A stretch of 64,000 nucleotides of DNA from a virus. The DNA is taken from positions 20,656-84,655 of IMG/VR virus record IMGVR_UViG_3300021963_000083; one strand, written 5' to 3'. Positions 53,532 through 63,290 of this stretch are shown one piece after another. The translations under genes and the position numbers were made by a program. Each line of letters starts with the position of its first letter. The first letter of the stretch is position 1. The notes beneath the pieces are model-generated. The model did no database searches and had not been told where the DNA came from. It saw only the letters and a program-made list of their open reading frames with translations.

Positions 53532-54174
53532 TGTTTAGGTATCCTGTAACACTCTTTGCTAATACGGAAGTTCTACGAAGAGTAACCTCATCAGCTGTCG
53601 TGTTGCTTTCTGAAAACCCAACGACCATTATGCCGATAGGATAGTTCAGTAAATTTACTAGTGGACATACCACTGCTTTGTTTAACTTGTGCGCTTTGAA
53701 ATATCTACGAGTAGAAGTATCTACTGGTGAATACAGCACTATACACTCCGGTTTGTCTATACGTTGCCAAACCTGACGTAAGCTTCTATTCATAGCTGAG
53801 ATGGGTTCATCTATATCGGGCTCGTGCCCATCATCATCCGAGGGATCTACATAATAAGTTGTTGAGACATTAGTAAAAGGTATCCCTGTTAAATCATGTC
53901 GCCCATTATGAAATTGCTTAATAATAACATTATCAGCTTTCGTATATACCCTAAGGTCTTCTATGCTTTTATTTATAATGTCTGTACTATGCAATTGAGC
54001 TTTGAATCTTGCTGCTTGTTGGTCGGGTGTAACTACTAAGCTCTGTATCGTGTTATAGCTCTTCACGCCTACATAAGAGGCAAAGACTATAAATACAGCC
54101 ACCATAGTAGCTACTGGCTTCGCGGACAGGGAATCTATAAGTGCTTTGACAGCCTTACTTAGATCCTTTATCAT
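53521..54174 (-). CDS. Membrane-anchored GAF-like domain protein
   Basis: 217 residues. One TM (VATMVAVFIVFASYVGV, about 21-38) followed by a GAF-like fold (VYTKADNVIIKQFHNGRHDLTGIPF ... IGIMVVGFSES). Proteins of this plan are common in lysis and late regions of large phages, with unknown ligand. It overlaps the terminase small subunit gene by 20 nt. Confidence 0.6.
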   Translation of the reverse strand: MIKDLSKAVKALIDSLSAKPVATMVAVFIVFASYVGVKSYNTIQSLVVTPDQQAARFKAQLHSTDIINKSIEDLRVYTKADNVIIKQFHNGRHDLTGIPFTNVSTTYYVDPSDDDGHEPDIDEPISAMNRSLRQVWQRIDKPECIVLYSPVDTSTRRYFKAHKLNKAVVCPLVNLLNYPIGIMVVGFSESNTTADEVTLRRTSVLAKSVTGYLNNGY

Positions 54175-54583
54175 TTGTTAATAGTTTTTCCATCAACTGT
54201 CCATAGTTTCCTTGGCCAAAGTTAGCAATATTAACTGTGGGGCCACCATTTCCATTCTCCTGCTTCAGCTCGTCCATTCTTATCTTATGAGCAAACTGTA
54301 ACAGCTCTAGTAAGTCCTTCGAGGTATACATACCGGACTCTTCTGCTTCTTCAAGTTTAGCGTCAATCATCCGGTCGAGAACCTGTCCCAACTTATGTCT
54401 ATTTCTAAAGCCCCTATCAAGATAGACGCCCGTTATATAGTCTTTAACATCCTTGCGCTCTAATAGCTGAATAACTTGATATTCAGGAACTTGAAGCTGG
54501 TTAGCCGTTTCCTGTGCGGAACCATATTCAAGATAGGCGTTTGCAATGTCAAGACATTCTGGAGTAAGTGCGATTTGTGTCAT
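54155..54583 (-). CDS. Terminase small subunit (probable), leaderless
   Basis: 142 residues from ATG 54583. An HTH near ETANQLQVPEYQVIQLLERKDVKDYITGVYLDRGFRNRHK and a helical oligomerisation part (LGQVLDRMIDAKLEEA, KDLLELLQFAHKIRMDEL) fit TerS. The -10 of the promoter ends 7 nt before ATG 54583, so the mRNA would begin at or 1 nt before the start codon and lack a leader. The longer frame to 54619 would start inside the promoter and is rejected. First gene of the leftward late operon. Confidence 0.75.
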   Translation of the reverse strand: MTQIALTPECLDIANAYLEYGSAQETANQLQVPEYQVIQLLERKDVKDYITGVYLDRGFRNRHKLGQVLDRMIDAKLEEAEESGMYTSKDLLELLQFAHKIRMDELKQENGNGGPTVNIANFGQGNYGQLMEKLLTNDKGSK

Positions 54584-54590
54584 AATGTGC

Positions 54591-54619
54591 ATTATAACAG
54601 CAAGGGGATTGTGGGTCAA
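54591..54619 (-). promoter_or_regulatory. Late operon promoter, leftward
   Basis: Leftward TTGACC (54619-54614), 17 bp, TATAAT (54596-54591). It is divergent from the rightward promoter at 54674, with about 55 bp between the -35 boxes. Confidence 0.88.
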
Positions 54620-54673
54620 GCTATTTTTAGGCTAGGTGCCGGTATAGGCGATTCAACTCGCAAAATATTTATC

Positions 54674-54702
54674 TTGACTTTCGTTCGTGGATGATGTATA
54701 TT
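54674..54702 (+). promoter_or_regulatory. Rightward promoter giving a leaderless mRNA
   Basis: TTGACT (54674-54679), 17 bp, TATATT (54697-54702). ATG 54709 is 6 nt after the -10, at the predicted transcription start. Confidence 0.75.
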
Positions 54703-54708
54703 AACAAA

Positions 54709-54834
54709 ATGGAAATAGAAACATTAAAGAGCATTTCAGAGGCATTGCTGCCGCTGGACGATATTAACGAGCAGTGGGAGCAATCCTGGAAAGCAATAGA
54801 GGAGTTTTTAGATGAACTACATATTAGCAGGTAA
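54709..54834 (+). CDS. Small protein of unknown function (41 aa), leaderless
   Basis: 41 residues, acidic and helical (MEIETLKSISEALLPLDDIN). Its ATG coincides with the predicted transcription start. It overlaps the next small frame by 23 nt, whose GAGGAG ribosome site lies inside it. Confidence 0.55.
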   Translation: MEIETLKSISEALLPLDDINEQWEQSWKAIEEFLDELHISR

Positions 54835-54946
54835 TCGTCCAGGCTGGAGTCTAGAAGGTCTGAGAAGAGAAGATAGAGGTGAATACAGCTTCTTTTATAG
54901 GGGCGACAAGTGTGTACGAGTAATCGCGACCTGGCTACTCGCCTAA
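54812..54946 (+). CDS. Small protein of unknown function (44 aa)
   Basis: 44 residues, MNYILAGNRPGWSLEGLRRED start, preceded by GAGGAG 9 nt upstream. Overlaps the 41-residue gene in another frame. Basic, with one Cys; no family recognised. Confidence 0.5.
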   Translation: MNYILAGNRPGWSLEGLRREDRGEYSFFYRGDKCVRVIATWLLA

Positions 54947-54990
54947 TGTTTGGTTTCCGCGACGCGATTTTTTAAAATGGAGAAAAGTTT

Positions 54991-55407
54991 ATGTTAGAAT
55001 GTTTAATTTTGGGCGACTCGATTGCAGTCGGTACAAAAATGTTCGCCCCTCAGGAGTGCGTCTCCTATGCTAAGGGCGGATTTAACTCTTGGCAGTGGAA
55101 TCGGCGTTGGGGTACGAGTCCTGTCGAGGCTAAAACGGTGGTGATTAGTTTGGGAGCGAATGATCACGCGGGTGTGAAGACGGAAGCGGAGCTGCTGAAG
55201 CTTCGTAAGCGAATTCGGGCGTCTAGAGTGGTGTGGATTATGCCTCCTTGTAACGCGAGATTCTGTAAGTTGGGCGTAAATACGGTGGTTCGTAGCGTGG
55301 CGGTGAGCTACGGGGACAGAACGATCTCGACGAGTTACTTGCAACCGGATAAAATCCACCCTAGCTGGCGTGGATATAAAGAATTGGTGAGGTTGGCTGG
55401 TATTTAG
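54991..55407 (+). CDS. SGNH-fold hydrolase (GDSL esterase-like)
   Basis: 138 residues. Block I GDSIAVG with the nucleophile Ser, block III GAND (oxyanion Asn), and block V DKIHPS with the Asp-His pair, all in order. The domain is minimal in length. In phages, SGNH proteins may deacetylate or cleave surface glycans or lipids. No signal peptide, so cytoplasmic or virion-associated. GGAGAAA precedes ATG 54991. Confidence 0.85.
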   Translation: MLECLILGDSIAVGTKMFAPQECVSYAKGGFNSWQWNRRWGTSPVEAKTVVISLGANDHAGVKTEAELLKLRKRIRASRVVWIMPPCNARFCKLGVNTVVRSVAVSYGDRTISTSYLQPDKIHPSWRGYKELVRLAGI

Positions 55408-55550
55408 CACCTTAGTCGGTGTTTTTACCCAAAGTGGTACGTGCGGAGTAGTCTGAGCGTGTTAGGAATCAACTAGTCTAACAACCCCCATACCATACCC
55501 GCCCCCTCCTGTCAAGCATTATTTTTATTTTATTTTTTTTATTTTTTATA

Positions 55551-55579
55551 TTGACAAGGCAAGCGGTCATTGGTATAAG
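55551..55579 (+). promoter_or_regulatory. Rightward promoter, conserved-leader type
   Basis: TTGACA (55551-55556), 17 bp, TATAAG (55574-55579), followed at 55581 by the leader GTGCATCAAGACAGAAGGA shared with other early genes. An upstream T-rich tract resembles an UP element. Confidence 0.8.
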
Positions 55580-55607
55580 GGTGCATCAAGACAGAAGGAC
55601 TAAGACT

Positions 55608-55790
55608 ATGGTTGAATATGTTGTTTCTCTTATCGTTTACTTTGCATCTATCGCTGGCGTGTTTGTGTGCTTGTGGGGCATGGTTCAGATGCGGGATGAC
55701 CGCAAGATGGTTTGGTTTTTTACTCTGACCTCATTTGTTTTTATGTTTACAATGTGGCTTGGCGTTACTATGTTTCAGAATATGGCATAA
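55608..55790 (+). CDS. Small membrane protein, two TM segments
   Basis: 60 residues from ATG 55608, chosen for its GAAGGAC leader site. Two TM helices (VVSLIVYFASIAGVFVCLWGMV; MVWFFTLTSFVFMFTMWLGVTMF) joined by RDDRK. Possibly an early membrane-acting or superinfection-related protein; function unknown. Confidence 0.65.
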   Translation: MVEYVVSLIVYFASIAGVFVCLWGMVQMRDDRKMVWFFTLTSFVFMFTMWLGVTMFQNMA

Positions 55791-55795
55791 GGAAA

Positions 55796-55999
55796 ATGGA
55801 CATGGAATTTGAATCTTGGCTTGCCGCCGTTGACAAGGCTTTCAATCGCATTACTGGCATGAGCCGCGATTGTTGGCCTGACCAAGATTATTGGTCAATG
55901 TATGATGCAGGCGACACGCCAACGGAAGCGGCCATTGCCGCAATCGAAAATGAATATGGCGAGGAAGGCTTAGAAGCCTTCGGCCTTCAACTAGCATAG
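55796..55999 (+). CDS. Small acidic protein of unknown function
   Basis: 67 residues (MDMEFESWLAAVDKAFNRITGMSRDCWPDQDYWSMYDAG...). Starts 5 nt after the upstream stop with AAGGAAA. Acidic, Trp-rich. Similar small proteins with a DYWSMYDAGDTPTEA stretch occur in plasmids and phages; function unknown. Confidence 0.6.
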   Translation: MDMEFESWLAAVDKAFNRITGMSRDCWPDQDYWSMYDAGDTPTEAAIAAIENEYGEEGLEAFGLQLA

Positions 56000-56012
56000 A
56001 AGGGAAAGAATA

Positions 56013-56153
56013 ATGGTTACGCCAATACAAGCGGCCCCAATGGGCAAGACCTATCGCGTATCATCCGAAAGCGCATGGCCCTTGCGAGGACTGGACGGCA
56101 AGACCTTTGCCGAACGGCGCAAAGAAAAAGACAATGGCCCTAGCAAAAGCTAG
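56013..56153 (+). CDS. Small basic protein ending inside a terminator hairpin
   Basis: 46 residues, preceded by AAGGGAAAG. The last codons (GGC CCT AGC AAA AGC TAG) are the left arm, loop and right arm of the GGCCCTAGC/GCTAGGGCC hairpin, so coding sequence and terminator are the same bases. Function unknown. Confidence 0.5.
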   Translation: MVTPIQAAPMGKTYRVSSESAWPLRGLDGKTFAERRKEKDNGPSKS

Positions 56154-56160
56154 GGCCTAT
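56136..56160. terminator. Hairpin terminator overlapping a stop codon
   Basis: GGCCCTAGC / GCTAGGGCC with an AAAA loop. The U-tract is weak rightward (TATTGG); leftward it is followed by ATTGTCTTTTTC. It may stop both the operon and the short leftward transcript from the promoter at 56190-56219. Confidence 0.65.
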
Positions 56161-56189
56161 TGGCGCCAAAAATTTTGCACGCTACCTTA

Positions 56190-56219
56190 AATGTAGCACG
56201 TGCGACTAGGGCCTGTCAA
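56190..56219 (-). promoter_or_regulatory. Leftward promoter facing the operon end
   Basis: Leftward TTGACA (56219-56214), 18 bp, TACATT (56195-56190). The transcript would run about 50 nt through GGCGCC at 56162 into the 56136 hairpin. Confidence 0.55.
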
Positions 56220-56253
56220 TAGCATTTATTTTTTATTTTTGCGATTTTTTCTG

Positions 56254-56282
56254 TTGACACTATGGCAAGGCATTGGTAAAAG
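56254..56282 (+). promoter_or_regulatory. Rightward promoter, conserved-leader type
   Basis: TTGACA (56254-56259), 17 bp, TAAAAG (56277-56282), then the leader GTGCATCAAGACGGAAGGA at 56284 and ATG 56310. Confidence 0.8.
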
Positions 56283-56309
56283 AGTGCATCAAGACGGAAG
56301 GAAAAACAA

Positions 56310-56792
56310 ATGGCTTATGTAATTTTTGACCTCGACGGCACTGTGATTGATTCGACGCATCGCCAAGCGACTAAGGCTGATGGCTCGCTTGACCTTGACC
56401 ATTGGATTGAGCGCAACAAGCCAGAAATGATTATGCGCGATTCGCTTTTGCCATTGTCTCGCGTTATGCGTATCATCAAAGCAAACGGCCATAAGGTTAT
56501 CGTTTGCACTGCCCGCTCTTATCAAATTGCTGATGAGGAATTTTTGGCAATGCATGGCCTTGACTATGACGTTTATTTGTCACGCGCTGCTAAAGGCGAT
56601 ATGCGTGACGATGCCAGCCTTAAGGTTCAATTGCTTAATGATTACTTCACTGGCCTAGGCTTTCGGTCGGTTGAAGCTGCCAAGCCAATGATGTTTGACG
56701 ATAACCTAAAGGTTATTGATGCAATGATTGCAATTGGCGTAACTTGCTATGATGCAAAATATGCTAACCACCGCCTTGCAAAGCGCGCTTAA
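56310..56792 (+). CDS. HAD-superfamily phosphatase, polynucleotide 3'-phosphatase-like
   Basis: 160 residues. HAD motif I FDLDGTVID (residues 6-14), motif II VCTARS near 70, motif III Lys near KVQLLNDY, and motif IV MMFDDNLKV. Size and the CTARS step match the phosphatase half of T4 polynucleotide kinase. It could restore 3'-OH ends of nicked RNA or DNA. A 5'-nucleotidase role is the alternative. Followed by a strong terminator, so it is a single-gene transcript. Confidence 0.78.
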   Translation: MAYVIFDLDGTVIDSTHRQATKADGSLDLDHWIERNKPEMIMRDSLLPLSRVMRIIKANGHKVIVCTARSYQIADEEFLAMHGLDYDVYLSRAAKGDMRDDASLKVQLLNDYFTGLGFRSVEAAKPMMFDDNLKVIDAMIAIGVTCYDAKYANHRLAKRA

Positions 56793-56795
56793 GGA

Positions 56796-56830
56796 ATAGG
56801 CGGGAGCAATCCCGCCTATTTTTTTTTTAT
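56796..56830 (+). terminator. Intrinsic terminator after HAD phosphatase
   Basis: ATAGGCGGGA / TCCCGCCTAT with a GCAA loop followed by nine or more T. Confidence 0.92.
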
Positions 56831-56838
56831 TTTTCCTA

Positions 56839-56868
56839 TTGACAAGGCCAGGCCCACTATGGTATAAT
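56839..56868 (+). promoter_or_regulatory. Rightward promoter of convergent pair 1
   Basis: TTGACA (56839-56844), 18 bp, TATAAT (56863-56868). No ORF starts nearby. It faces a leftward promoter at 56924-56953. Confidence 0.85.
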
Positions 56869-56869
56869 G

Positions 56870-57000
56870 GGCTGATGCCCAAAATTCGCGCCAAAAGCGC
56901 CGAAAATTTTGCCCGCTACTACCATTATAGCACGCGCGGCTGGGTGCTGTCAATAGGGAAAATGAAAAAATGCGATGAACGGTTCGTCGCATTTTTTGGC
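56870..57000 (+). ncRNA. Candidate short noncoding transcript between promoter and hairpin terminator
   Basis: From the predicted start near 56875 to a hairpin TGCGATGA/TTCGTCGCA with a 3-nt loop (56971-56991) and ATTTTTT. About 120 nt. The beginning contains the tandem elements CGCGCCAAAA and GCGCCGAAAA. An alternative frame in frame with the downstream HTH gene also runs through here, so noncoding status is inferred. Confidence 0.4.
56924..56953 (-). promoter_or_regulatory. Leftward promoter of convergent pair 1
   Basis: Leftward TTGACA (56953-56948), 18 bp, TATAAT (56929-56924), then GGTAGTAGCGGGC and GGCGC elements. About 55 bp from the facing -10 at 56868. Confidence 0.85.
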
Positions 57001-57018
57001 GTTTGGTGTTTTTTTCTC

Positions 57019-57047
57019 TTGCAAGCTTTGCCGATTGCGTCTAATAA
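57019..57047 (+). promoter_or_regulatory. Weak rightward promoter for the first HTH paralogue
   Basis: TTGCAA (57019-57024), 17 bp, TAATAA (57042-57047), followed by TTCATCAAGAGGGG, a variant of the conserved leader. Confidence 0.5.
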
Positions 57048-57096
57048 TGGTTCATCAAGAGGGGATGGGCCTCTCCTGATAACGAAAGAAAATTTT

Positions 57097-57408
57097 ATGA
57101 CTAAGGTTGTTGAAAAGAATTACTCTGAAGCCCAAGAATCGGCTTTGCTTGCGGCTGGCGTTATTGATAACGCAAAGGCTTTGGAATTTGCCGAAAAATT
57201 CGGCAAGGATGTTCGCTCGATTCGCGCTAAGGCGGTTCGCATGGGCATTTATAAGGCACAGCCCAAGGTTTCCAAGACTGGCGGTAAAATCGAATCCAAG
57301 GAAGCGATTGCTGCCGATATTTCGGAAATCATTGGCAAGAGCCTTGAAGGTCTGGAAAAGGCCCCTAAGCTGGTTCTGCAAATTTTGCGGGAAAAGCTTT
57401 CGGCTTAA
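57097..57408 (+). CDS. HTH-domain protein, paralogue 1 (103 aa)
   Basis: 103 residues from ATG 57097. The body SEAQESALLAAGVIDNAKAL ... KFGKDVRSIRAKAVRMGIYKA is a single HTH like the third repeat of the 1157-1873 protein. The C-terminal half (IAADISEIIGKSLEGLEKAPKLVLQIL) is helical. It is of the same length as, and mostly identical in sequence to, the protein at 60064-60375. Probably a DNA-binding regulator; the promoter array around it is a plausible target. It is transcribed as its own unit with a strong terminator. Confidence 0.72.
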   Translation: MTKVVEKNYSEAQESALLAAGVIDNAKALEFAEKFGKDVRSIRAKAVRMGIYKAQPKVSKTGGKIESKEAIAADISEIIGKSLEGLEKAPKLVLQILREKLSA

Positions 57409-57430
57409 CCGATAAAATCTAAAGCCTAAC

Positions 57431-57460
57431 GGCGGGGAGAAATCCCCGCCATTTTTTTTT
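57431..57460 (+). terminator. Intrinsic terminator after HTH paralogue 1
   Basis: GGCGGGGA / TCCCCGCC with a GAAA loop followed by ATTTTTTTTT. Confidence 0.92.
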
Positions 57461-57480
57461 GTTTTTTGCAATTTTTCCTA

Positions 57481-57509
57481 TTGACAAGGCCCGACCAATA
57501 TGGTATAAT
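57481..57509 (+). promoter_or_regulatory. Rightward promoter of convergent pair 2
   Basis: TTGACA (57481-57486), 17 bp, TATAAT (57504-57509). Closely similar to pair 1 (TTGACAAGGCC ... ATGGTATAATGGG). No ORF follows before the facing promoter. Confidence 0.85.
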
Positions 57510-57554
57510 GGGGTGATGCGCTGAAGGCGCCAAAGCACCGATAGGTGCGCCGAA

Positions 57555-57583
57555 ATTATACCAGATTTCCGCGTGCCTGTCAA
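57555..57583 (-). promoter_or_regulatory. Leftward promoter of convergent pair 2
   Basis: Leftward TTGACA (57583-57578), 17 bp, TATAAT (57560-57555), followed by TTCGGCGCACC. The two -10 boxes are 45 bp apart with AAGGCGCC and GTGCGCCG between them. Confidence 0.85.
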
Positions 57584-57640
57584 GCAAAAAAATTCGATTG
57601 AACAAACTTTTTTAATCGGTTTTTTCCATCAATAAATCGC

Positions 57641-57669
57641 TTGCAATAGGGGCAGGGATTGGCTATAAA
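57641..57669 (+). promoter_or_regulatory. Rightward promoter for the three-TM protein
   Basis: TTGCAA (57641-57646), 17 bp, TATAAA (57664-57669). An ATG at 57675 is 5 nt after the -10; the better-supported start is 57696. Confidence 0.65.
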
Positions 57670-57695
57670 GAGGCATGGAAACGAAAGGAAACGAA

Positions 57696-57983
57696 ATGAA
57701 AAAAATGTTCAATAAAATCAAGGAGATGCCAAAATCCGAATTGTGCGGCTGGCTTGGCATGATACTTGTGCAATCGGCAACATTGCCTACCACAATTTCG
57801 GTTCTGCTAGGCTATAGCGACAAATTGCCGCCTATTTCTATGGTTCTGCTAGTCTGGGCTGGCTTGGCGCTTTACTTTGTCCGCGCTTTCAAGAATAAAG
57901 ATGTTCTTTATATGGTATCTAACGGATTCGGTTTTTTCGTTAATACTATTCTACTCGCCCTAATCGTTTATCCTCAATACTAA
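57696..57983 (+). CDS. Three-TM protein resembling PQ-loop/SemiSWEET transporters
   Basis: 95 residues from ATG 57696, preceded by AAAGGAAACGAA. Three TM helices (GWLGMILVQSATLPTTISVLLG; ISMVLLVWAGLALYFVRAF; LYMVSNGFGFFVNTILLALIVY). The size, three-helix plan and a LPTTISVL stretch where PQ-loop proteins carry PQ suggest SemiSWEET-like half-transporters. The signature residue differs, so this is a resemblance only. Alternative start 57675 would make a leaderless mRNA. Confidence 0.6.
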   Translation: MKKMFNKIKEMPKSELCGWLGMILVQSATLPTTISVLLGYSDKLPPISMVLLVWAGLALYFVRAFKNKDVLYMVSNGFGFFVNTILLALIVYPQY

Positions 57984-57997
57984 GGAAAGGAAAGAAA

Positions 57998-58276
57998 ATG
58001 CCTGTTACTTTCAACTCTGATACTGTCGCGTTTCTTATTCATGAGATTGACGACATTTTATCCCATGCCGATATTACTGCGGGCATGTGCGATGATTTGT
58101 CTAACTTTCTCAATGGGTTGGTCGATATAAATAAAGCTGGATCAATCGTTATTGTTCCCGATGATGATAATATCGGGGACGATTGGGACGATGATTTGGA
58201 CGGCTACCCGCCCGATGATGACGGCCCGAATTATGACGGCGGCGAGCTTGTAGGCTGGACTGTTGCCGATACCTAA
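57998..58276 (+). CDS. Acidic small protein of unknown function
   Basis: 92 residues, very acidic in the second half (PDDDNIGDDWDDDLDGYPPDDDG). Preceded by AAGGAAAGG. DNA-mimic proteins are similarly acidic and small, so inhibition of a DNA-binding host protein is possible but not shown. Ends just before a strong UUCG hairpin. Confidence 0.6.
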   Translation: MPVTFNSDTVAFLIHEIDDILSHADITAGMCDDLSNFLNGLVDINKAGSIVIVPDDDNIGDDWDDDLDGYPPDDDGPNYDGGELVGWTVADT

Positions 58277-58281
58277 AGACT

Positions 58282-58310
58282 GGGTGTGTTACTTCGGTAA
58301 CACACCCTAG
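58282..58310. terminator. UUCG-capped hairpin
   Basis: GGGTGTGTTAC / GTAACACACCC with a C(TTCG)G loop, 11-bp perfect stem. No T-run rightward (TAGCGCCG), so it may act as an mRNA 3' stabiliser or as part of the leftward transcript. Confidence 0.65.
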
Positions 58311-58337
58311 CGCCGAAAATTTTTGAACGCTACTCTA

Positions 58338-58367
58338 AGTATACCACGCAAGCGTATGGGCTGTCAA
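58338..58367 (-). promoter_or_regulatory. Leftward promoter facing the acidic-protein gene
   Basis: Leftward TTGACA (58367-58362), 18 bp, TATACT (58343-58338), then AGTAGCGTTCAAAAATTTTC and GGCGC, the same post-promoter elements as at 56190 and 56924. Confidence 0.7.
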
Positions 58368-58433
58368 CCCACAAAATGAAAAAATATGAAAAAAGTTATC
58401 CACAGCTTTCGCATTTTTTTATGTCGATTTTGT

Positions 58434-58462
58434 TTGACGGCATGGGCTGGATTTGGTAAAAG
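58434..58462 (+). promoter_or_regulatory. Rightward promoter, conserved-leader type
   Basis: TTGACG (58434-58439), 17 bp, TAAAAG (58457-58462), then GTGCATCAAGACGGAAACAA at 58464 and ATG 58496. Confidence 0.78.
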
Positions 58463-58495
58463 AGTGCATCAAGACGGAAACAAGGAAAAAACGAA

Positions 58496-59221
58496 ATGGC
58501 TGCTAAAAAATTCTTCGTCATCATTGACACGGAAACCACGCAATCGGGCATGGTTGCCGATATTGGCATTATTGTGTCTGACCGCAAGGGCAATATTCAT
58601 CATGAGGCTGGAATCCTTATTGGCGATTTTTTCTCTGACCGCGAGGCTCACCCGTTGTTTCATATCTATGGCGACAAAAACGACGTTTTTTCTGCCGAAT
58701 CGCTGCCTAAGCGTTACGCGAATTATGAACAAATGTTGCAAGATGGTCGTCGCGTTTTGGCAAGCGTTGGCGCTGTCAATCGTTTCTTGTCTAAAGTAAA
58801 GGCAAAGTATAACCCGACAATGACCGCCTATAACTTGGCTTTTGACTCTAACGTCATGGACAAAAGCGGAATTGTCGCAAACGAATTGTTCCCCGAATCG
58901 TTTTGTTTGTGGCACGCTGCTGTTGCCAAATGGGGCAATACTAGGGCGTTTAAGCAATTCGCGCTAGAAAATCACTTTTTCGGCAACCGAACAAGTAAAA
59001 CGGGCCACATGGGAATTAAAACCAACGCAGACGTTATGGCGAAATACTTGCTAGGCATGGGTTTGCCTGACGAGCCACACACTGCGCTAGAAGATGCCAA
59101 GTATTATGAGCTGCCTATACTTACCGCTCTGGTCAAGAATACTTCACCAAAAGAGTATATGTCGCCACCACCTTACAATTACCGCGCTTTTGCTGTCCGC
59201 GACCACTTCAAGGTCAAGTAA
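58496..59221 (+). CDS. DEDD-family exonuclease (RNase T/DnaQ-like)
   Basis: 241 residues. Exo I IDTETT (residues 10-15), Exo II YNLAFDSNVMD near 112-122, and Exo III with HTALEDAKY near 198-206: the His five residues before Asp indicates the DEDDh subgroup. No polymerase domain, so a free-standing DNA or RNA exonuclease. A single-gene transcript with conserved leader and terminator. Phages use such enzymes for host DNA or RNA degradation or proofreading support. Confidence 0.85.
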   Translation: MAAKKFFVIIDTETTQSGMVADIGIIVSDRKGNIHHEAGILIGDFFSDREAHPLFHIYGDKNDVFSAESLPKRYANYEQMLQDGRRVLASVGAVNRFLSKVKAKYNPTMTAYNLAFDSNVMDKSGIVANELFPESFCLWHAAVAKWGNTRAFKQFALENHFFGNRTSKTGHMGIKTNADVMAKYLLGMGLPDEPHTALEDAKYYELPILTALVKNTSPKEYMSPPPYNYRAFAVRDHFKVK

Positions 59222-59240
59222 AGGCCAAGTAAAACTAAAG

Positions 59241-59272
59241 TCCGCTCAAGTAAAACTGGGCGGATTTTTTTT
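59241..59272 (+). terminator. Intrinsic terminator after exonuclease
   Basis: TCCGCTCA / TGGGCGGA (two G-T wobbles) with an 8-nt loop followed by TTTTTTTT. Confidence 0.85.
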
Positions 59273-59293
59273 TGTCTGGGGCAATTTTTTCGC

Positions 59294-59322
59294 TTGACAC
59301 AAGAAAAAAATCCTGTTAAAAT
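59294..59322 (+). promoter_or_regulatory. Rightward promoter without a gene
   Basis: TTGACA (59294-59299), 17 bp, TAAAAT (59317-59322), followed by GCCCTGCGGGCGCCG. Runs about 90 nt into the next promoter. Confidence 0.75.
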
Positions 59323-59409
59323 GCCCTGCGGGCGCCGAAATTTTTGTTCACGTTTTGTTCCATGCCGCGCTAGGGCGAGAATTATTTTTCGGATGGCGAT
59401 TTTTTCTAT

Positions 59410-59438
59410 TGACAAGGCCGCTGGACTCTGCTATAATG
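59410..59438 (+). promoter_or_regulatory. Rightward promoter of convergent pair 3
   Basis: TTGACA (59410-59415), 17 bp, TATAAT (59433-59438), followed by two GCGCCGA elements and the facing promoter. Confidence 0.85.
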
Positions 59439-59470
59439 GGTTTGATAGCGCCGAAATTGGCCTGGCGCCG

Positions 59471-59499
59471 ATTTTAGCAGGATTCGCCGCGCTTGTCAA
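59471..59499 (-). promoter_or_regulatory. Leftward promoter of convergent pair 3
   Basis: Leftward TTGACA (59499-59494), 17 bp, TAAAAT (59476-59471), directly followed by CGGCGCC. The two -10 boxes are 32 bp apart. Confidence 0.82.
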
Positions 59500-59548
59500 G
59501 AGAAAAAATTTTCTGGACGCAATTATTCTGGGCGCGATAAATGATATT

Positions 59549-59695
59549 ATGTTAAATGAAAAAACGTATTGGAATCAATCACTTAGGGCGGCTGGGGCTG
59601 ATAAATGGCGTTATGTTAAATGCGTGATACGATATATCATCACCAATGATATGTTATATCATCTCATGAGGCTTATTGATAATGATTCGCAATAG
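59549..59695 (+). CDS. Weak 48-codon ORF
   Basis: MLNEKTYWNQSLRAAGADKW... Downstream of the 59410 promoter but no Shine-Dalgarno and no family. Protein-like composition is the only support. Could be chance. Confidence 0.22.
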   Translation: MLNEKTYWNQSLRAAGADKWRYVKCVIRYIITNDMLYHLMRLIDNDSQ

Positions 59696-59708
59696 CAGCG
59701 CTATTGCG
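59688..59708. other. 9-bp perfect hairpin with three-base loop
   Basis: CGCAATAGC-AGC-GCTATTGCG. No U-run on either side. It ends in GCGCC and lies within the leftward transcript of the 59750-59778 promoter. Confidence 0.6.
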
Positions 59709-59749
59709 CCAGAGTGCAAAATAAACAAGTGCTAAAATTACGTGCGCCA

Positions 59750-59778
59750 ATTATAGTGCGAAAATTACAGGTTGTCAA
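59750..59778 (-). promoter_or_regulatory. Leftward promoter, GGCGC type
   Basis: Leftward TTGACA (59778-59773), 17 bp ending TTTTCGCAC, TATAAT (59755-59750), then TGGCGCACG. Confidence 0.85.
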
Positions 59779-59845
59779 GCGATTTTTTTTTTGGTTAGCG
59801 AAAAAATTTATTTTAACCTATTTGGTTAAAGCGCGCAGCGCCAAA

Positions 59846-59874
59846 AGTATAGTGCAAATTTGACCCGCTGTCAA
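59846..59874 (-). promoter_or_regulatory. Leftward promoter, GGCGC type
   Basis: Leftward TTGACA (59874-59869), 17 bp ending AATTTGCAC, TATACT (59851-59846), then TTTGGCGCTGCGCGC. Confidence 0.82.
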
Positions 59875-59917
59875 GTGAAAAATTTGCATGTGGCCGGAGC
59901 AGATGCAAAAATTGCAC

Positions 59918-59946
59918 TTGACCGGCCCACCCCTTTCCGCTATAAA
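59918..59946 (+). promoter_or_regulatory. Rightward promoter upstream of HTH paralogue 2
   Basis: TTGACC (59918-59923), 17 bp, TATAAA (59941-59946). The transcript carries GGAAGGGAGAGGG and ATG 59970, which is in frame with the HTH gene and would add 31 residues. Confidence 0.7.
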
Positions 59947-60003
59947 GGATGGGTCGGAAGGGAGAGGGAAATGCAAATTATTTCAACGCTGAAAAAATTG
60001 TTC

Positions 60004-60032
60004 TTGACTTCTCTGTCCGATCTAGGTATAAT
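60004..60032 (+). promoter_or_regulatory. Main rightward promoter of HTH paralogue 2
   Basis: TTGACT (60004-60009), 17 bp, TATAAT (60027-60032), then ATCATCAAGACACGGAAGGG, a variant of the conserved leader, and ATG 60064. Confidence 0.85.
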
Positions 60033-60063
60033 CAATCATCAAGACACGGAAGGGAACATTGAT

Positions 60064-60375
60064 ATGACTAAGGAAGTTGTGAAGAACTACTCGGAAGCGC
60101 AAGAAGCCGAAATGCTGGCTGCTGGCGTTATCGACAACGACGCTGCGATTGAGTTCGCTGCGAAGTTCGGTAAGGACGTTCGTTCTATCCGCGCTAAGGC
60201 TGTCCGTATGGGCATCTACAAAGCTAAGGACAAGGTGTCCAAGAGCGGTGCTCCTATTGAGCGCAAGGAAGAAATTGTTGCGGACATCGCAGCAATCATC
60301 GGCAAGAACCTCGACGGCCTCGAAAAGGCTCCTAAGCAGGTTCTCGTTGCGTTGCGTACTCGCTTGAGTGCGTAA
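60064..60375 (+). CDS. HTH-domain protein, paralogue 2 (103 aa)
   Basis: 103 residues from ATG 60064. Same fold and length as 57097-57408: KNYSEAQEAEMLAAGVIDND..., FGKDVRSIRAKAVRMGIYKA, then AIIGKNLDGLEKAPKQVL. The two proteins are highly similar while codons differ (this copy is more GC-rich), so the duplication is old or one copy was acquired. Two promoters, at 59918 and 60004, could give two N-terminal forms. Likely a DNA-binding regulator of unknown targets. Confidence 0.75.
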   Translation: MTKEVVKNYSEAQEAEMLAAGVIDNDAAIEFAAKFGKDVRSIRAKAVRMGIYKAKDKVSKSGAPIERKEEIVADIAAIIGKNLDGLEKAPKQVLVALRTRLSA

Positions 60376-60577
60376 CTAATAGGAAGGGGCGAGAGGGCAG
60401 ATAGCTTTCACACCCCCTTCCGAAAGCCTACAGTACACGACCGGCTCCCGCCGAGTACCAGTTATTCACCCTAGGTTGTATATAACTGAGTCTCCACACG
60501 GATCGGCTAAGTACGAAATAAGCCTGCTACCAGCCCATCTGGTAGCAGGCTTTTTTGCGTCCGCCTGCGGCGCCAAA
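60376..60577 (+). other. Untranslated 3' region of HTH paralogue 2
   Basis: Starts with a GGAAGGGG/CCCCTTCC stem (60382-60421) enclosing a 24-nt loop and ends in the strong terminator at 60521. About 100 nt between them (60422-60520) show no ORF and no promoter. It may be a structured 3' UTR or processed sRNA. Confidence 0.45.
60521..60556. terminator. Strong, probably bidirectional terminator
   Basis: AGCCTGCTACCAG / CTGGTAGCAGGCT with a short loop, TTTTTT on the right and an AAATA tract on the left. It would stop the HTH transcript rightward and the three tandem leftward transcripts from 60.58-60.79 kb. Confidence 0.88.
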
Positions 60578-60606
60578 ATTATAGTGGAAAATCGACGTGA
60601 AGTCAA
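60578..60606 (-). promoter_or_regulatory. Leftward promoter, tandem unit 1
   Basis: Leftward TTGACT (60606-60601), 17 bp, TATAAT (60583-60578), TTTGGCGCC follows. About 20 nt to the terminator stem. Confidence 0.85.
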
Positions 60607-60668
60607 GACAAATTTTTAGCAGCCCTGCGCGTTCCACCGCGCAAACTCGCACCCGCCCAGGGGCGCCG

Positions 60669-60697
60669 ATTATAGTGGCAAATCAATGCAAAGTCAA
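60669..60697 (-). promoter_or_regulatory. Leftward promoter, tandem unit 2
   Basis: Leftward TTGACT (60697-60692), 17 bp, TATAAT (60674-60669), CGGCGCC follows. Confidence 0.85.
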
Positions 60698-60760
60698 GTC
60701 AAATTTTTTAAGCCCTGCCACATCTACACCCAGAAACATCCAAATCGCCAAAAGGCGCCG

Positions 60761-60789
60761 ATTATAGTGGCAAATCAACACCCTGTCAA
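60761..60789 (-). promoter_or_regulatory. Leftward promoter, tandem unit 3
   Basis: Leftward TTGACA (60789-60784), 17 bp, TATAAT (60766-60761), CGGCGCC follows. It is divergent from the rightward promoter at 60833, with about 44 bp between the -35 boxes. Confidence 0.85.
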
Positions 60790-60832
60790 GTACAATTTTT
60801 ACCAAGCCTCGCGACTCCGTCGCAAATTGGTC

Positions 60833-60861
60833 TTGACTTGCGAGGCCAAACGCAGTATAGT
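60833..60861 (+). promoter_or_regulatory. Rightward promoter for the 86-aa gene
   Basis: TTGACT (60833-60838), 17 bp, TATAGT (60856-60861). AAGGAGAGAACC precedes ATG 60887. Confidence 0.82.
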
Positions 60862-60886
60862 GTATCTTCAACCTAAGGAGAGAACC

Positions 60887-61147
60887 ATGCGTAAGATTTT
60901 CATTCTAGATGACATTGAAGTAGTGCTCTATCAGAGTGCTATTGCTATTCCTGAAATTTTCCTTAACTACGACGTAAATAAGATCGAGCTTCACGTCGAC
61001 GACGTAGATCGTCCGACTGTTTGGGAGATCGTATTCGTCGAGTCTGACGATAGTGAAGTAGTAATCGGTGAAATCACCCTTATGGAGGATTTTTCTGCGT
61101 ACTTTGACCTATTTGACGATGATGAGGGAATTATCGACGAAAGTTGA
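60887..61147 (+). CDS. Acidic protein of unknown function (86 aa)
   Basis: 86 residues, strongly acidic (VDDVDRPTVWEIVFVESDDSEVV ... DLFDDDEGIIDES), predicted beta-rich. AAGGAG gives a strong ribosome site, and a terminator follows, so it is an independent early gene. A DNA-mimic role is possible by charge only. No family recognised. Confidence 0.65.
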   Translation: MRKIFILDDIEVVLYQSAIAIPEIFLNYDVNKIELHVDDVDRPTVWEIVFVESDDSEVVIGEITLMEDFSAYFDLFDDDEGIIDES

Positions 61148-61171
61148 GATAAACCCAGATAAGTTGACATA

Positions 61172-61205
61172 AAGCCCGTTGGACTAGTTCCGGCGGGCTT
61201 TTTTG
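61172..61205 (+). terminator. Intrinsic terminator
   Basis: AAGCCCG / CGGGCTT with an inner GGA/TCC step, followed by TTTTTTG. Confidence 0.9.
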
Positions 61206-61329
61206 TTGTCTAAAATCAACTTGGCGCCGACAAAAACGAAGATTTTTTACGTGCGGCGGACCTTTTGCACACTTTTGCGTACTTTTTCAACCTCAGGGGA
61301 AGTTTATTCCAAACCACAGCAAGCAGACA

Positions 61330-61366
61330 AAAAAATAGCCCACTACAGTTTAGTAGCAGGCTAACG
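61330..61366 (-). terminator. Leftward intrinsic terminator
   Basis: Reading leftward, AGCCTGCTAC pairs with GTAGTGGGCT (two G-U pairs) across a 6-nt loop, followed by ATTTTTTT. Marks the end of the predicted noncoding transcript. Confidence 0.8.
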
Positions 61367-61902
61367 ATCTTCGTCGTAATTCTAGTAGTATTTAAGTGTA
61401 ATAGTAACGCTACGGCGGGCTAGAGTGGGCTGACGCGCGACTAGTATGGTATGGACAAGTTTGCGTTGAAAGGGTTATAAACCAGTATAAATTTAAAAAT
61501 AAGTAGGAACAGTTGTTGACCAACAAAGAGGCTTAAAATGACCTTTGTAGCTTGTTTGTATTGCAAATACAATTGTAGCCGTTAAATCGGATATTATACT
61601 GTTTTAGTTGAGCATAAACAGTTGTCTCAAACTTTGTTGCGTGTTTGGTGTATCTTCGATACTTATTGGTGAACTTCGTTCGGTTACTTGTTCTTAGGTT
61701 GATGCTTTAGTTTGAGACTTCGTCTCTGTGTGCTTGCTTTATATTAAACAGTATAAAATAGATTCTTAAAATCTTCTCCGGTACTGTTGTAGAAAGACTA
61801 CCGCTTACGCTCCCGTCTTTCTGACAACAACCCTGGAGGTTAAACTAGTGTGTAATAAACTGTATAAGTAAATATAAGCTATTACCAACTAACTATGTTA
61901 GT

Positions 61903-61931
61903 ATAATATCATGACTTTTGCGAAAAGTCAA
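61903..61931 (-). promoter_or_regulatory. Leftward promoter inside the hairpin region
   Basis: Leftward TTGACT (61931-61926), 17 bp, TATTAT (61908-61903). Its spacer contains the perfect hairpin TGACTTTT-GCG-AAAAGTCA, which overlaps the -35. Confidence 0.7.
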
Positions 61932-62016
61932 GAGTTATTTTTCTAAGGTATGGTTTAAACTTATTGTATCCTAGCGTTTGGAAACTTCGTTTCCCTGGTT
62001 GGGCTGTGATGAACTC

Positions 62017-62045
62017 TGTATAACACGGCCTGGGCTTGAAGTCAA
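62017..62045 (-). promoter_or_regulatory. Leftward promoter for the candidate ncRNA
   Basis: Leftward TTGACT (62045-62040), 17 bp, TATACA (62022-62017). It is divergent from the rightward promoter at 62062. Confidence 0.7.
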
Positions 62046-62061
62046 GTGCTAAATTTATGTC

Positions 62062-62090
62062 TTGACTTTAGCTTGTTTATGTAGTATAGT
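62062..62090 (+). promoter_or_regulatory. Rightward promoter giving a leaderless mRNA
   Basis: TTGACT (62062-62067), 17 bp, TATAGT (62085-62090). ATG 62098 is 7 nt after the -10, so it is at or 1 nt after the predicted start site. Confidence 0.82.
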
Positions 62091-62097
62091 GTCAACT

Positions 62098-62694
62098 ATG
62101 TTTAAAGATGCAGAAATATCTAACGAGAATTACTTCAATAGGCCCTTTGCCTACAGAGACTTTACACAGTCTGAATTTAAAGATTGCGAGTTCGAGGACT
62201 GTGGCTTTACAAAGGCGGACTTCCTAGGCGCGATCTTCGTCGGTTGCGACTTCTTTAGGTGCGACCTTGATATGGCGTATCTAACTGGCGTGCGCTTCGA
62301 GCACTGTCGTTTTATAGAGTGTAGCTTCAATGAAGCCTACATCTTTAGGTCGCAGTTCAAAAACTGTGAGATTACTCTATGCACGATGCGTGACGCGATG
62401 CTGTCAACTGTAGACTTTCCTGGCACGGACTTCGACTCTGTGAGCTGGAATGGCACTATAATCCATAGTGCTCCTATAATCATAGATGGGATAGAGTATC
62501 CTATTGTAGCACTAGACAATGGCTATATGCACGTCGGGTGTGAGTTCAATACTATGGATTGGTTTTATACTACAGAAGAGCAGTATAGTGCTAGAATGGA
62601 AGGGCTTCGCGCTCGCCGCTTCTGGAAGCAGAATAAGAAGTGGATATTTGATATGTTAGTAGCAAGGAAATTATATGTATACCCTGAAAATTGA
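62098..62694 (+). CDS. Pentapeptide-repeat protein
   Basis: 198 residues from ATG 62098. Residues about 15-120 form pentapeptide repeats A/C-[DE]-F-x-x (DFTQS EFKDC EFEDC GFTKA DFLGA IFVGC DFFRC DLDMA YLTGV RFEHC RFIEC SFNEA YIFRS QFKNC), giving a right-handed beta-helix. A C-terminal basic helix (RARRFWKQNKKWIF) follows. Some members mimic DNA and protect or inhibit gyrase. The longer frame from 62062 begins in the promoter and is rejected. No Shine-Dalgarno, consistent with a leaderless mRNA. Confidence 0.85.
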   Translation: MFKDAEISNENYFNRPFAYRDFTQSEFKDCEFEDCGFTKADFLGAIFVGCDFFRCDLDMAYLTGVRFEHCRFIECSFNEAYIFRSQFKNCEITLCTMRDAMLSTVDFPGTDFDSVSWNGTIIHSAPIIIDGIEYPIVALDNGYMHVGCEFNTMDWFYTTEEQYSARMEGLRARRFWKQNKKWIFDMLVARKLYVYPEN

Positions 62695-62872
62695 ATCAGT
62701 AAATGATGACTTTCTAAGAGCTGTACAGGCCGTTATTCAAGAGAATAAACTATGGCGTTATCGCGAAGTCACAGTAGGACTCTACAGTACTAGTGTAGAA
62801 GTAAGTACTATGAGTATAAAAGAACTTAATTATCTAATAAATGTTCTAAGGGAACTTGAGCATAATGAATGA
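62675..62872 (+). CDS. Small protein of unknown function (65 aa)
   Basis: 65 residues (MYTLKIESVNDDFLRAVQAVIQENKLWRYREVTVGLYS). Overlaps the pentapeptide gene by 20 nt and the next gene by 8 nt, so coupled. No family recognised. Confidence 0.6.
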   Translation: MYTLKIESVNDDFLRAVQAVIQENKLWRYREVTVGLYSTSVEVSTMSIKELNYLINVLRELEHNE

Positions 62873-63089
62873 CAGGATACAAGATGAATCAACGGCGTAC
62901 TTTCATTATTATAGTGAATTCTCCCGAGATAGAACCACCAGTATAGTTAAAGAAACTGAAGACGGCGAGTTATATATAGAACTATCCGATGAACTCCTGG
63001 AACGAATGGGCTGGACAGAAGGAACAGCACTAGTCTGGATAGTAGAGGATGATAGAATTATTCTACGCGAAGAAAAGGAACAATTATGA
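62865..63089 (+). CDS. Small protein with AbrB/MazE-like C-terminus
   Basis: 74 residues from ATG 62865. The C-terminal GELYIELSDELLERMGWTEGTALVWIVEDDRIILRE has the swapped-hairpin pattern of AbrB/MazE DNA-binding domains (L-P-x-x-L-x-x-x-G-W-x-x-G-D). It is normally found as antitoxin or regulator; no toxin gene adjoins. Overlaps both neighbours by a few bases. Confidence 0.55.
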   Translation: MNDRIQDESTAYFHYYSEFSRDRTTSIVKETEDGELYIELSDELLERMGWTEGTALVWIVEDDRIILREEKEQL

Positions 63090-63265
63090 AGTATGCAATT
63101 AAGGTATATTTACCAGACAATAGCTGGGTCTACGTAAGTGAGGGGCCGGTTGATGAAATGCGTGTATGGACTACTGACTCTCTAGAGAAAGCGGAAGCCT
63201 ACAGACAGGTCTGGGTAATTGATGGTAACGAGGAAGAAGTCGAGATAGTTGAATATCAACCTTGA
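63086..63265 (+). CDS. Small protein of unknown function (59 aa)
   Basis: 59 residues (MKYAIKVYLPDNSWVYVSEG ... EEEVEIVEYQP), AAAAGGAAC before the ATG. Predicted beta-alpha, acidic C-terminus. It ends inside the 63262 promoter. Confidence 0.6.
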   Translation: MKYAIKVYLPDNSWVYVSEGPVDEMRVWTTDSLEKAEAYRQVWVIDGNEEEVEIVEYQP

Positions 63266-63290
63266 CATCTTCGTGTCAATCCGCTATTAT
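63262..63290 (+). promoter_or_regulatory. Rightward promoter with palindrome over the -35
   Basis: TTGACA (63262-63267), 17 bp, TATTAT (63285-63290). TTGACA-TCTTCG-TGTCAA forms an inverted repeat, a possible operator. Confidence 0.75.

What the first reader, a model, noticed from the sequence alone, without database searches (positions are those of the whole stretch)
54591..63290. About 28 near-consensus sigma70 promoters in under 9 kb
Hand scanning finds about 15 rightward and 13 leftward promoters, nearly all with exactly 17 bp spacers and close to TTGACA/TATAAT, compared with about four in the other 54 kb. This far exceeds the number of genes in the region. It suggests strong capture of host RNA polymerase early in infection.
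Basis: seen in the sequence. Interest (0 to 1): 0.72.

Follow-up and report, generated by a model that had tools for sequence, protein, structure and literature searches.

The report
Opposing promoter pairs in phage pre-early region
The start-up region of an uncultured T5-like freshwater phage is packed with near-perfect host promoters, and the strongest of them do not drive genes but point head-on against them beside an RNA hairpin, an arrangement kept by dozens of related phages that probably acts as a polymerase-collision barrier between genes.

Summary
The promoter cluster is real. With >=11/12 consensus matches it has 14 sites in 8.7 kb, against 0.16 in shuffles and 4 in the other 54.6 kb of the window; about 23 sites reach >=10/12. 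"Early RNA polymerase capture" explains only part of it.

The region lies beside the terminase small-subunit gene, where T5 keeps its pre-early (first-step-transfer) genes. It encodes two homologues of T5 A2 and a dmp-family phosphatase. Promoters whose leaders run into genes are mostly the weaker ones. All seven perfect 12/12 promoters instead face each other, or point back against the genes, mostly across GGCGC(C)-containing inverted repeats.

In 79 loci from related uncultured phages, sampled by an unrelated gene, promoters with GGCGC at the start site lie 256:5 on the strand opposite the early genes. About 80% abut a strong hairpin. G.U/A.C asymmetry suggests the hairpin works in gene-sense RNA. 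Both hexamers are conserved while the spacers diverge.

Best reading: hairpin plus opposing sigma70 promoter is a collision terminator or insulator between pre-early gene cassettes, a natural version of a published synthetic part. Antisense shut-off, supercoiling coupling and cassette shuffling remain possible. There is no expression data, and no cultured member was found.

The parts
56839..56868 (+). Perfect sigma70 promoter (TTGACA-18-TATAAT), left half of face-to-face pair C; no gene before the next hairpin
56924..56953 (-). Perfect leftward promoter (TTGACA-18-TATAAT), right half of pair C; -10s 55 bp apart
56965..57001 (+). Long hairpin with T-run: rightward terminator after pair C
   Evidence: fold
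57481..57509 (+). Perfect promoter, left half of face-to-face pair D
57555..57583 (-). Perfect leftward promoter with GGCGC at the start, right half of pair D; -10s 45 bp apart
59409..59437 (+). Perfect promoter, left half of face-to-face pair F
59471..59499 (-). Leftward promoter TTGACA-17-TAAAAT with CGGCGCC at the start, right half of pair F; -10s 33 bp apart
56190..56219 (-). Leftward promoter (TACATT -10), GGCGCC 22 nt downstream, then hairpin 56136-56157
58338..58367 (-). Leftward promoter TTGACA-18-TATACT, GGCGC then 10-bp hairpin 58283-58306 with a UUCG loop on the gene-sense strand
59750..59778 (-). Perfect leftward promoter with TGGCGC at the start
59846..59874 (-). Leftward promoter TTGACA-17-TATACT with TTTGGCGC, then TTTAACC/GGTTAAA hairpin
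60578..60606 (-). Leftward promoter of the tandem triplet (about 92 bp spacing), TTTGGCGCC, facing hairpin 60520-60552
60669..60697 (-). Leftward promoter of the tandem triplet, CGGCGCC
60761..60789 (-). Perfect leftward promoter of the tandem triplet, CGGCGCC
59294..59322 (+). Rightward promoter TTGACA-17-TAAAAT, not directly before a gene
55551..55579 (+). Gene-proximal promoter (TATAAG) with the shared CATCAAGA leader
56254..56282 (+). Gene-proximal promoter (TAAAAG, 9.1 bits), CATCAAGA leader, for the phosphatase gene
58434..58462 (+). Gene-proximal promoter (TTGACG/TAAAAG, 7.9 bits), CATCAAGA leader, for the exonuclease-like gene
60004..60032 (+). Gene-proximal promoter (TTGACT/TATAAT), CATCAAGA leader, for the second A2-like gene
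54591..54619 (-). Leftward promoter before the late (terminase) block; no GGCGC, not part of the opposing element
56310..56792 (+). HAD phosphatase, PHROG 415, the family that holds the T5-like dmp proteins
57097..57408 (+). A2-like HTH protein, copy 1
60064..60375 (+). A2-like HTH protein, copy 2 (74% DNA identity to copy 1)
58496..59221 (+). DnaQ-like exonuclease family protein, used to sample the clade without bias
54155..54619 (-). Terminase small subunit, first gene of the leftward late block

Best explanation
The region is the pre-early control region of a T5-like phage. Each pre-early gene has its own modest sigma70 promoter. Most gene boundaries also carry a composite barrier: an RNA hairpin at the 3' end of the gene-sense transcript, a GGCGC(C) word, and a near-perfect, usually extended -10 sigma70 promoter (P<-) pointing back at the hairpin. 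In the window's lineage a second perfect promoter (P->) often faces it at 33-55 bp. Host RNA polymerase that is bound at, or fires from, P<- meets polymerase coming from the gene head-on at the hairpin. Sense transcription then stops there even though the hairpin usually lacks a U-tract, so neighbouring cassettes are insulated from each other. Shown by sequence: the promoters, their orientation bias, selection on both hexamers, the hairpin, its position and probable strand, and conservation across the clade. Inferred: that P<- is active, that polymerases collide or stall there, and that insulation is the benefit.
For: Enrichment over shuffles and over the rest of the genome. Unbiased clade sample of 79 loci: 256 GGCGC promoters on the strand opposite the early genes against 5 on the sense strand, control words 0-3. 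Strong antisense promoters at 1.82/kb of early intergenic DNA (38% of boundaries) against 0.19/kb (4%) at late boundaries of the same contigs. Hairpin beside 77-83% of these promoters against 5% in shuffles, its end most often 8-9 nt from the P<- -10, with a U-tract in 11 of 134 such hairpins against 72 of 320 others. Mismatches are 27 G.U to 9 A.C read on the gene-sense strand (p=0.004; 15 to 5, p=0.04 in the unbiased set), the same bias as ordinary U-tract terminators of these loci. Hexamers 97%/83% conserved against 73% in the spacer for leftward promoters, and 92%/87% against 57% for rightward ones. Sixteen face-to-face elements keep both promoters almost letter for letter while everything else drifts. 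Published precedent: a hairpin between converging E. [quoted passage not shown] a synthetic 'terminator followed by antisense promoter' represses a gene in proportion to promoter strength (PMC4731013).
Against: No transcript data; P<- activity is not shown. In pairs C and D of the window ordinary U-tract hairpins stand nearby, so a collision would be redundant there. Geometry is not neat: polymerase sitting in the P<- open complex would stop the sense enzyme before the hairpin is fully transcribed. The precise GGCGC word, its quantised offset (1, 3 or 21-22 nt after the -10) and the self-complementary -10 of one subclass are not explained by collision alone. Loci of one clade are not independent, so the p-values are optimistic.
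Confidence: 0.42

Rival explanations
1. Antisense shut-off or expression tuning: P<- transcripts run leftward through the pre-early genes and repress them, either constantly or as an early-to-late switch, possibly timed by the A2-like DNA-binding proteins acting at GGCGC.
For: P<- points at the 3' end of each gene and mostly has no terminator of its own; all P<- point toward the late block; the published synthetic part does just this; A2-like genes occur in 1-4 copies per locus.
Against: Hairpin mismatches favour a role in the sense RNA, not the antisense RNA; consensus promoters should act from the first minute, which would throttle genes the phage needs at once; no antisense coding capacity is conserved.
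Confidence: 0.2
2. Supercoiling coupling: P<- and the gene promoter stand back to back, so transcription from P<- leaves negative supercoils that help open the gene promoter on freshly injected, relaxed linear DNA.
For: In the window the gene promoters follow P<- within 35-130 bp and are weaker; in the clade sample 145 of 257 P<- have a divergent promoter-like site within 300 bp.
Against: 44% have no such partner at a permissive cut-off; does not predict the hairpin or the extra facing promoter; the topology of this DNA is unknown.
Confidence: 0.12
3. Promoter plus stem-loop cassettes kept because they are recombination modules that shuffle early genes, like the PeSLs of T4-type phages.
For: Elements repeat within a genome and resemble each other more within a contig than between contigs (k-mer Jaccard 0.070 against 0.030); gene content between elements varies between relatives.
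Against: Recombination needs only homology, not two intact hexamers at 17-18 bp with a diverged spacer, and does not explain orientation against the genes.
Confidence: 0.1
4. Early capture of host RNA polymerase: many strong promoters draw transcription to the phage.
For: Pre-early position and density; T5 uses strong sigma70 promoters for all classes (PMC7472727).
Against: Strongest promoters drive no gene; orientation, hairpin and GGCGC are unexplained; T5 and a Vibrio T5-like phage do without such an array.
Confidence: 0.08

Closest known systems
PeSLs (promoter early stem-loop) of T4-type phages (Arbiol 2010; Comeau 2014, as cited in PMC4503421)
   Same: Composite promoter plus stem-loop motifs between early genes, repeated through the genome
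   Different: From what I recall, in PeSLs the promoter serves the downstream gene; here the characteristic promoter points against the genes, carries GGCGC at its start and abuts the hairpin head-on
Synthetic 'unidirectional terminator + antisense promoter' part (Brophy and Voigt, PMC4731013)
   Same: Same order of parts at the 3' end of a gene
   Different: Engineered; its terminators are complete, here the hairpin usually lacks a U-tract; natural and repeated at many boundaries
Bidirectional termination by head-on RNA polymerase collision at hairpins (Liu laboratory, PMC13082048)
   Same: Hairpin between converging polymerases
   Different: Described there for convergent transcription units; here one of the two units has no gene and is only a promoter
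Face-to-face promoters of temperate phages 186 and P2 (from general knowledge)
   Same: Two sigma70 promoters converging within tens of base pairs
   Different: There a single pair drives two regulatory genes; here many pairs drive none
T5 first-step-transfer (pre-early) region
   Same: Next to the terminase gene, A2 and dmp families, sigma70 transcription
   Different: T5-type genomes examined have few near-consensus promoters there and no opposing element; the A1 gene was not found in the new clade

Membership tests
T5 pre-early (first-step-transfer) region | Lies immediately upstream of the terminase small-subunit gene, opposite in direction | tested here: met
   Terminase small subunit 54155-54619; A1, dmp and small terminase adjacent in Vibrio phage VspSw_1; terminal repeat near it in Shivani
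T5 pre-early (first-step-transfer) region | Encodes A2 (DNA-binding) and dmp | tested here: met
   Profile of the clade's HTH family hits two T5-like A2 proteins (2.5e-12 and 5.2e-10, a two-sequence database), PHROG 1725 shared by the second copy (5e-4); phosphatase shares PHROG 415 with dmp. The orthology of dmp is not proven
T5 pre-early (first-step-transfer) region | Encodes A1 (DNA transfer protein) | tested here: not met
   PHROG 1745: no match in 21 large records of the clade, found in both cultured control genomes; the records may be incomplete
T5 pre-early (first-step-transfer) region | Terminal repeat and two-step injection | not testable with these tools
   Needs read coverage or infection data
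PeSL cassettes | Promoter plus stem-loop repeated between early genes | tested here: met
PeSL cassettes | Promoter serves the downstream gene | tested here: not met
   GGCGC promoters 256:5 against the gene direction
PeSL cassettes | Mediates gene shuffling | tested here: inconclusive
   Raised within-genome similarity only
Intrinsic terminator | Hairpin followed by a U-tract | tested here: not met
   Hairpin yes; U-tract in 11 of 134 hairpins next to P<-
Stoperator-type repressor sites that resemble promoters (mycobacteriophage L5) | One protein-binding sequence conserved through its whole length | tested here: not met
   Spacer diverges while both hexamers are kept, at 17 or 18 bp; one 18-bp subclass does have a conserved self-complementary -10 region
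sigma70 promoter | -35 and -10 hexamers at 16-18 bp conserved independently of the spacer | tested here: met
sigma70 promoter | Directs transcription in the host | not testable with these tools
   No host, no RNA data

The most novel reading that the evidence does not exclude
A clade of uncultured T5-like phages has built a systematic promoter-against-gene architecture: nearly every pre-early cassette ends in a hairpin answered by a consensus promoter that exists only to place an opposing polymerase, with GGCGC as a binding site for the co-encoded A2-like protein, so that termination is conditional on polymerase occupancy and can be switched during infection.
Probability: 0.15. Interest if true: 0.85.

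Novelty: new variant of a known kind. Interest (0 to 1): 0.62.

Why it matters
If P<- is active, this is natural, repeated use of promoters as stop signals, which has been built synthetically and studied with purified polymerases. It would give many sequence variants for testing how a hairpin and an opposing promoter set a 3' end. It also warns that promoter counts in phage genomes should not be read as gene-expression strength without orientation, and it gives an orientation-based signature for finding the pre-early region of uncultured T5-like phages, for which none of the cultured records examined is a close model.

Tried and rejected
(1) Antisense proteins from the leftward promoters: an antisense frame (57055-57471) stays open in six relatives, but leftward ORFs lack convincing ribosome-binding sites and only 65 of 346 A2-family genes lack the codons that would close that frame. 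(2) Known RNA families: no Rfam hit in 54-64 kb. (3) Leftward promoters as sRNA genes with their own terminators: T-rich tail after the hairpin in only 10-14%. (4) Decoys for host DNA-binding proteins: parS-like and Fur-box-like sites do occur in some relatives but are as common in control loci, many of them from the same clade, and one exact DnaA box stands at 58396 in the window; not general to the element. (5) Cultured relatives: no nucleotide match to the region nor to the 39-nt consensus of the 18-bp subclass, and no protein match for the A2-like genes. (6) Host from genome contigs: one MAG contig and one weak hit, uninformative. (8) Searches for papers on antisense or convergent promoters in phage early regions found nothing on this arrangement; the library is open-access only.
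Full report
OBSERVATION. The cluster is real and far beyond chance. At >=11/12 matches there are 14 sites in 8.7 kb, against 0.16 +/- 0.41 in dinucleotide shuffles, 4 in the other 54.6 kb of the window and 4 in the 20.7 kb of the record left of it. A weight-matrix scan agrees: 16 sites at >=12 bits against 0.03 expected. The densest part is 56.8-60.9 kb.

WHERE IT IS. The window is 20656-84655 of an 84,655-base virus record. DNA polymerase, large terminase and portal are T5-like at 44-48% identity to cultured phages. The region begins at the small-terminase gene, where cultured T5-like phages have their pre-early genes A1, A2 and dmp. Two genes here (57097-57408 and 60064-60375, 74% alike in DNA) belong to a family of 435 ORF hits in the fetched loci whose profile matches T5-like A2 proteins, and the phosphatase at 56310-56792 shares PHROG 415 with dmp. 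A1 was not found in 21 large records of the clade, although the same search finds it in both cultured controls. So the region is pre-early by position and by two gene families; two-step injection cannot be inferred.

WHICH PROMOTERS DRIVE GENES. Most gene-proximal promoters share a CATCAAGA leader and score 6.8-12.9 bits, with imperfect -10s such as TAAAAG and TATAAG. The seven 12/12 promoters are different: three (56839, 57481, 59409) run rightward into a leftward promoter 33-55 bp away, and four (56953, 57583, 59778, 60789) run leftward against the genes. No leftward gene with a convincing ribosome-binding site follows them.

CONSERVATION. Relatives at 65-83% DNA identity were found through the A2-like gene. 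Over aligned leftward promoters the -35 is 97% and the -10 83% conserved against 73% in the spacer and 78% in the flanks; for rightward ones 92% and 87% against 57%. Sixteen face-to-face elements from the window and five other contigs align with TTGACA, TATAAT, GCGCC, ATTATA and TGTCAA almost invariant and the rest diverged. Both promoters of a pair are therefore kept as promoters.

A CLADE-WIDE ELEMENT. The leftward promoters carry GGCGC at the start site. To avoid choosing loci by the motif, 79 loci were taken by an exonuclease gene. There, GGCGC promoters number 256 on the strand opposite the early genes and 5 on the sense strand, in 63 of 79 loci. Strong antisense promoters occur at 1.82/kb of early intergenic DNA and 0.19/kb of late intergenic DNA on the same contigs. 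Related contigs are not independent, so these are effect sizes, not strict probabilities. Some lineages keep the element with GGCGC 21-22 nt downstream instead of 1-3 nt. A large subclass with an 18-bp spacer has a self-complementary -10 region whose arms change together (7.40 of 10 pairs against 6.72 +/- 0.05 with shuffled partners; subclass structure may account for part of this).

THE HAIRPIN. After GGCGC, 77-83% of these promoters have a strong hairpin, against 5% in shuffled sequence and 9% after sense promoters. Its end lies most often 8-9 nt from the P<- -10. Where stems are imperfect, mismatches are 27 G.U to 9 A.C when read on the gene-sense strand (p=0.004), the same bias as ordinary U-tract terminators of these loci (15 to 4), so the hairpin probably works in the gene-sense RNA. 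It usually lacks a U-tract: 11 of 134, against 72 of 320 other intergenic hairpins; part of that is because GGCGCC occupies the place.

MECHANISM. The parts add up to a 3' hairpin answered by a promoter aimed at it. Published work shows that a hairpin between converging E. coli polymerases fixes the collision point and stabilises the collided complex (half-life 150 against 6 min; PMC13082048), and that a synthetic terminator followed by an antisense promoter reduces expression of the gene in proportion to promoter strength (PMC4731013). I therefore favour a collision terminator or insulator between pre-early cassettes (0.42). Shown: the parts, selection on them, their orientation and their adjacency. 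Inferred: activity, collision and benefit. Antisense shut-off (0.20), supercoiling coupling (0.12), PeSL-like shuffling (0.10) and polymerase capture (0.08) stay open.

STATUS. Promoters, hairpins and collisions are known kinds; the systematic, clade-wide use of opposing promoters that drive no gene was not found in the literature searched, with the limit that only open-access papers are held. I rate it a new variant of a known kind.

Noticed in passing
L041 intergenic regions (e.g. 739-1035, 1600-1835, 2307-2630); also L043, L057, L132 and others: Exact or near-exact chromosomal parS sites (TGTTTCACGTGAAACA) and Fur-box-like palindromes (AAATGCGAATGATTCGCATTTG) recur between early genes of related phages; a scrambled parS gives none. 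Possible host-protein binding sites; 9 parS-like sites in 6 of 79 unbiased loci.
   Followed up: partly
58396-58404: Exact DnaA box TTATCCACA in the non-coding gap before the exonuclease gene.
   Followed up: no
55000-60400 against the rest of the window: Leucine codon use differs: early genes prefer TTG/CTT/CTG and nearly avoid TTA, while late and replication genes prefer CTA/TTA. May reflect host-like codon use or a different origin of this block.
   Followed up: no
Clade loci L191-L269: GGCGC sits at quantised offsets after the -10 of leftward promoters (1, 3 or 21-22 nt), about two helical turns apart, which would suit a protein bound on one face.
   Followed up: partly
39236-41875 (-): One 879-aa ORF matches both head maturation protease and major head protein families, a likely protease-capsid fusion.
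   Followed up: no
57097-57408 and L041 4081-4407, 5576-5890: The A2-like family shows weak similarity to the GcrA cell-cycle regulator and sigma70 region 4 HTH models (below the Pfam cut-offs), and occurs in 1-4 copies per locus.
   Followed up: partly
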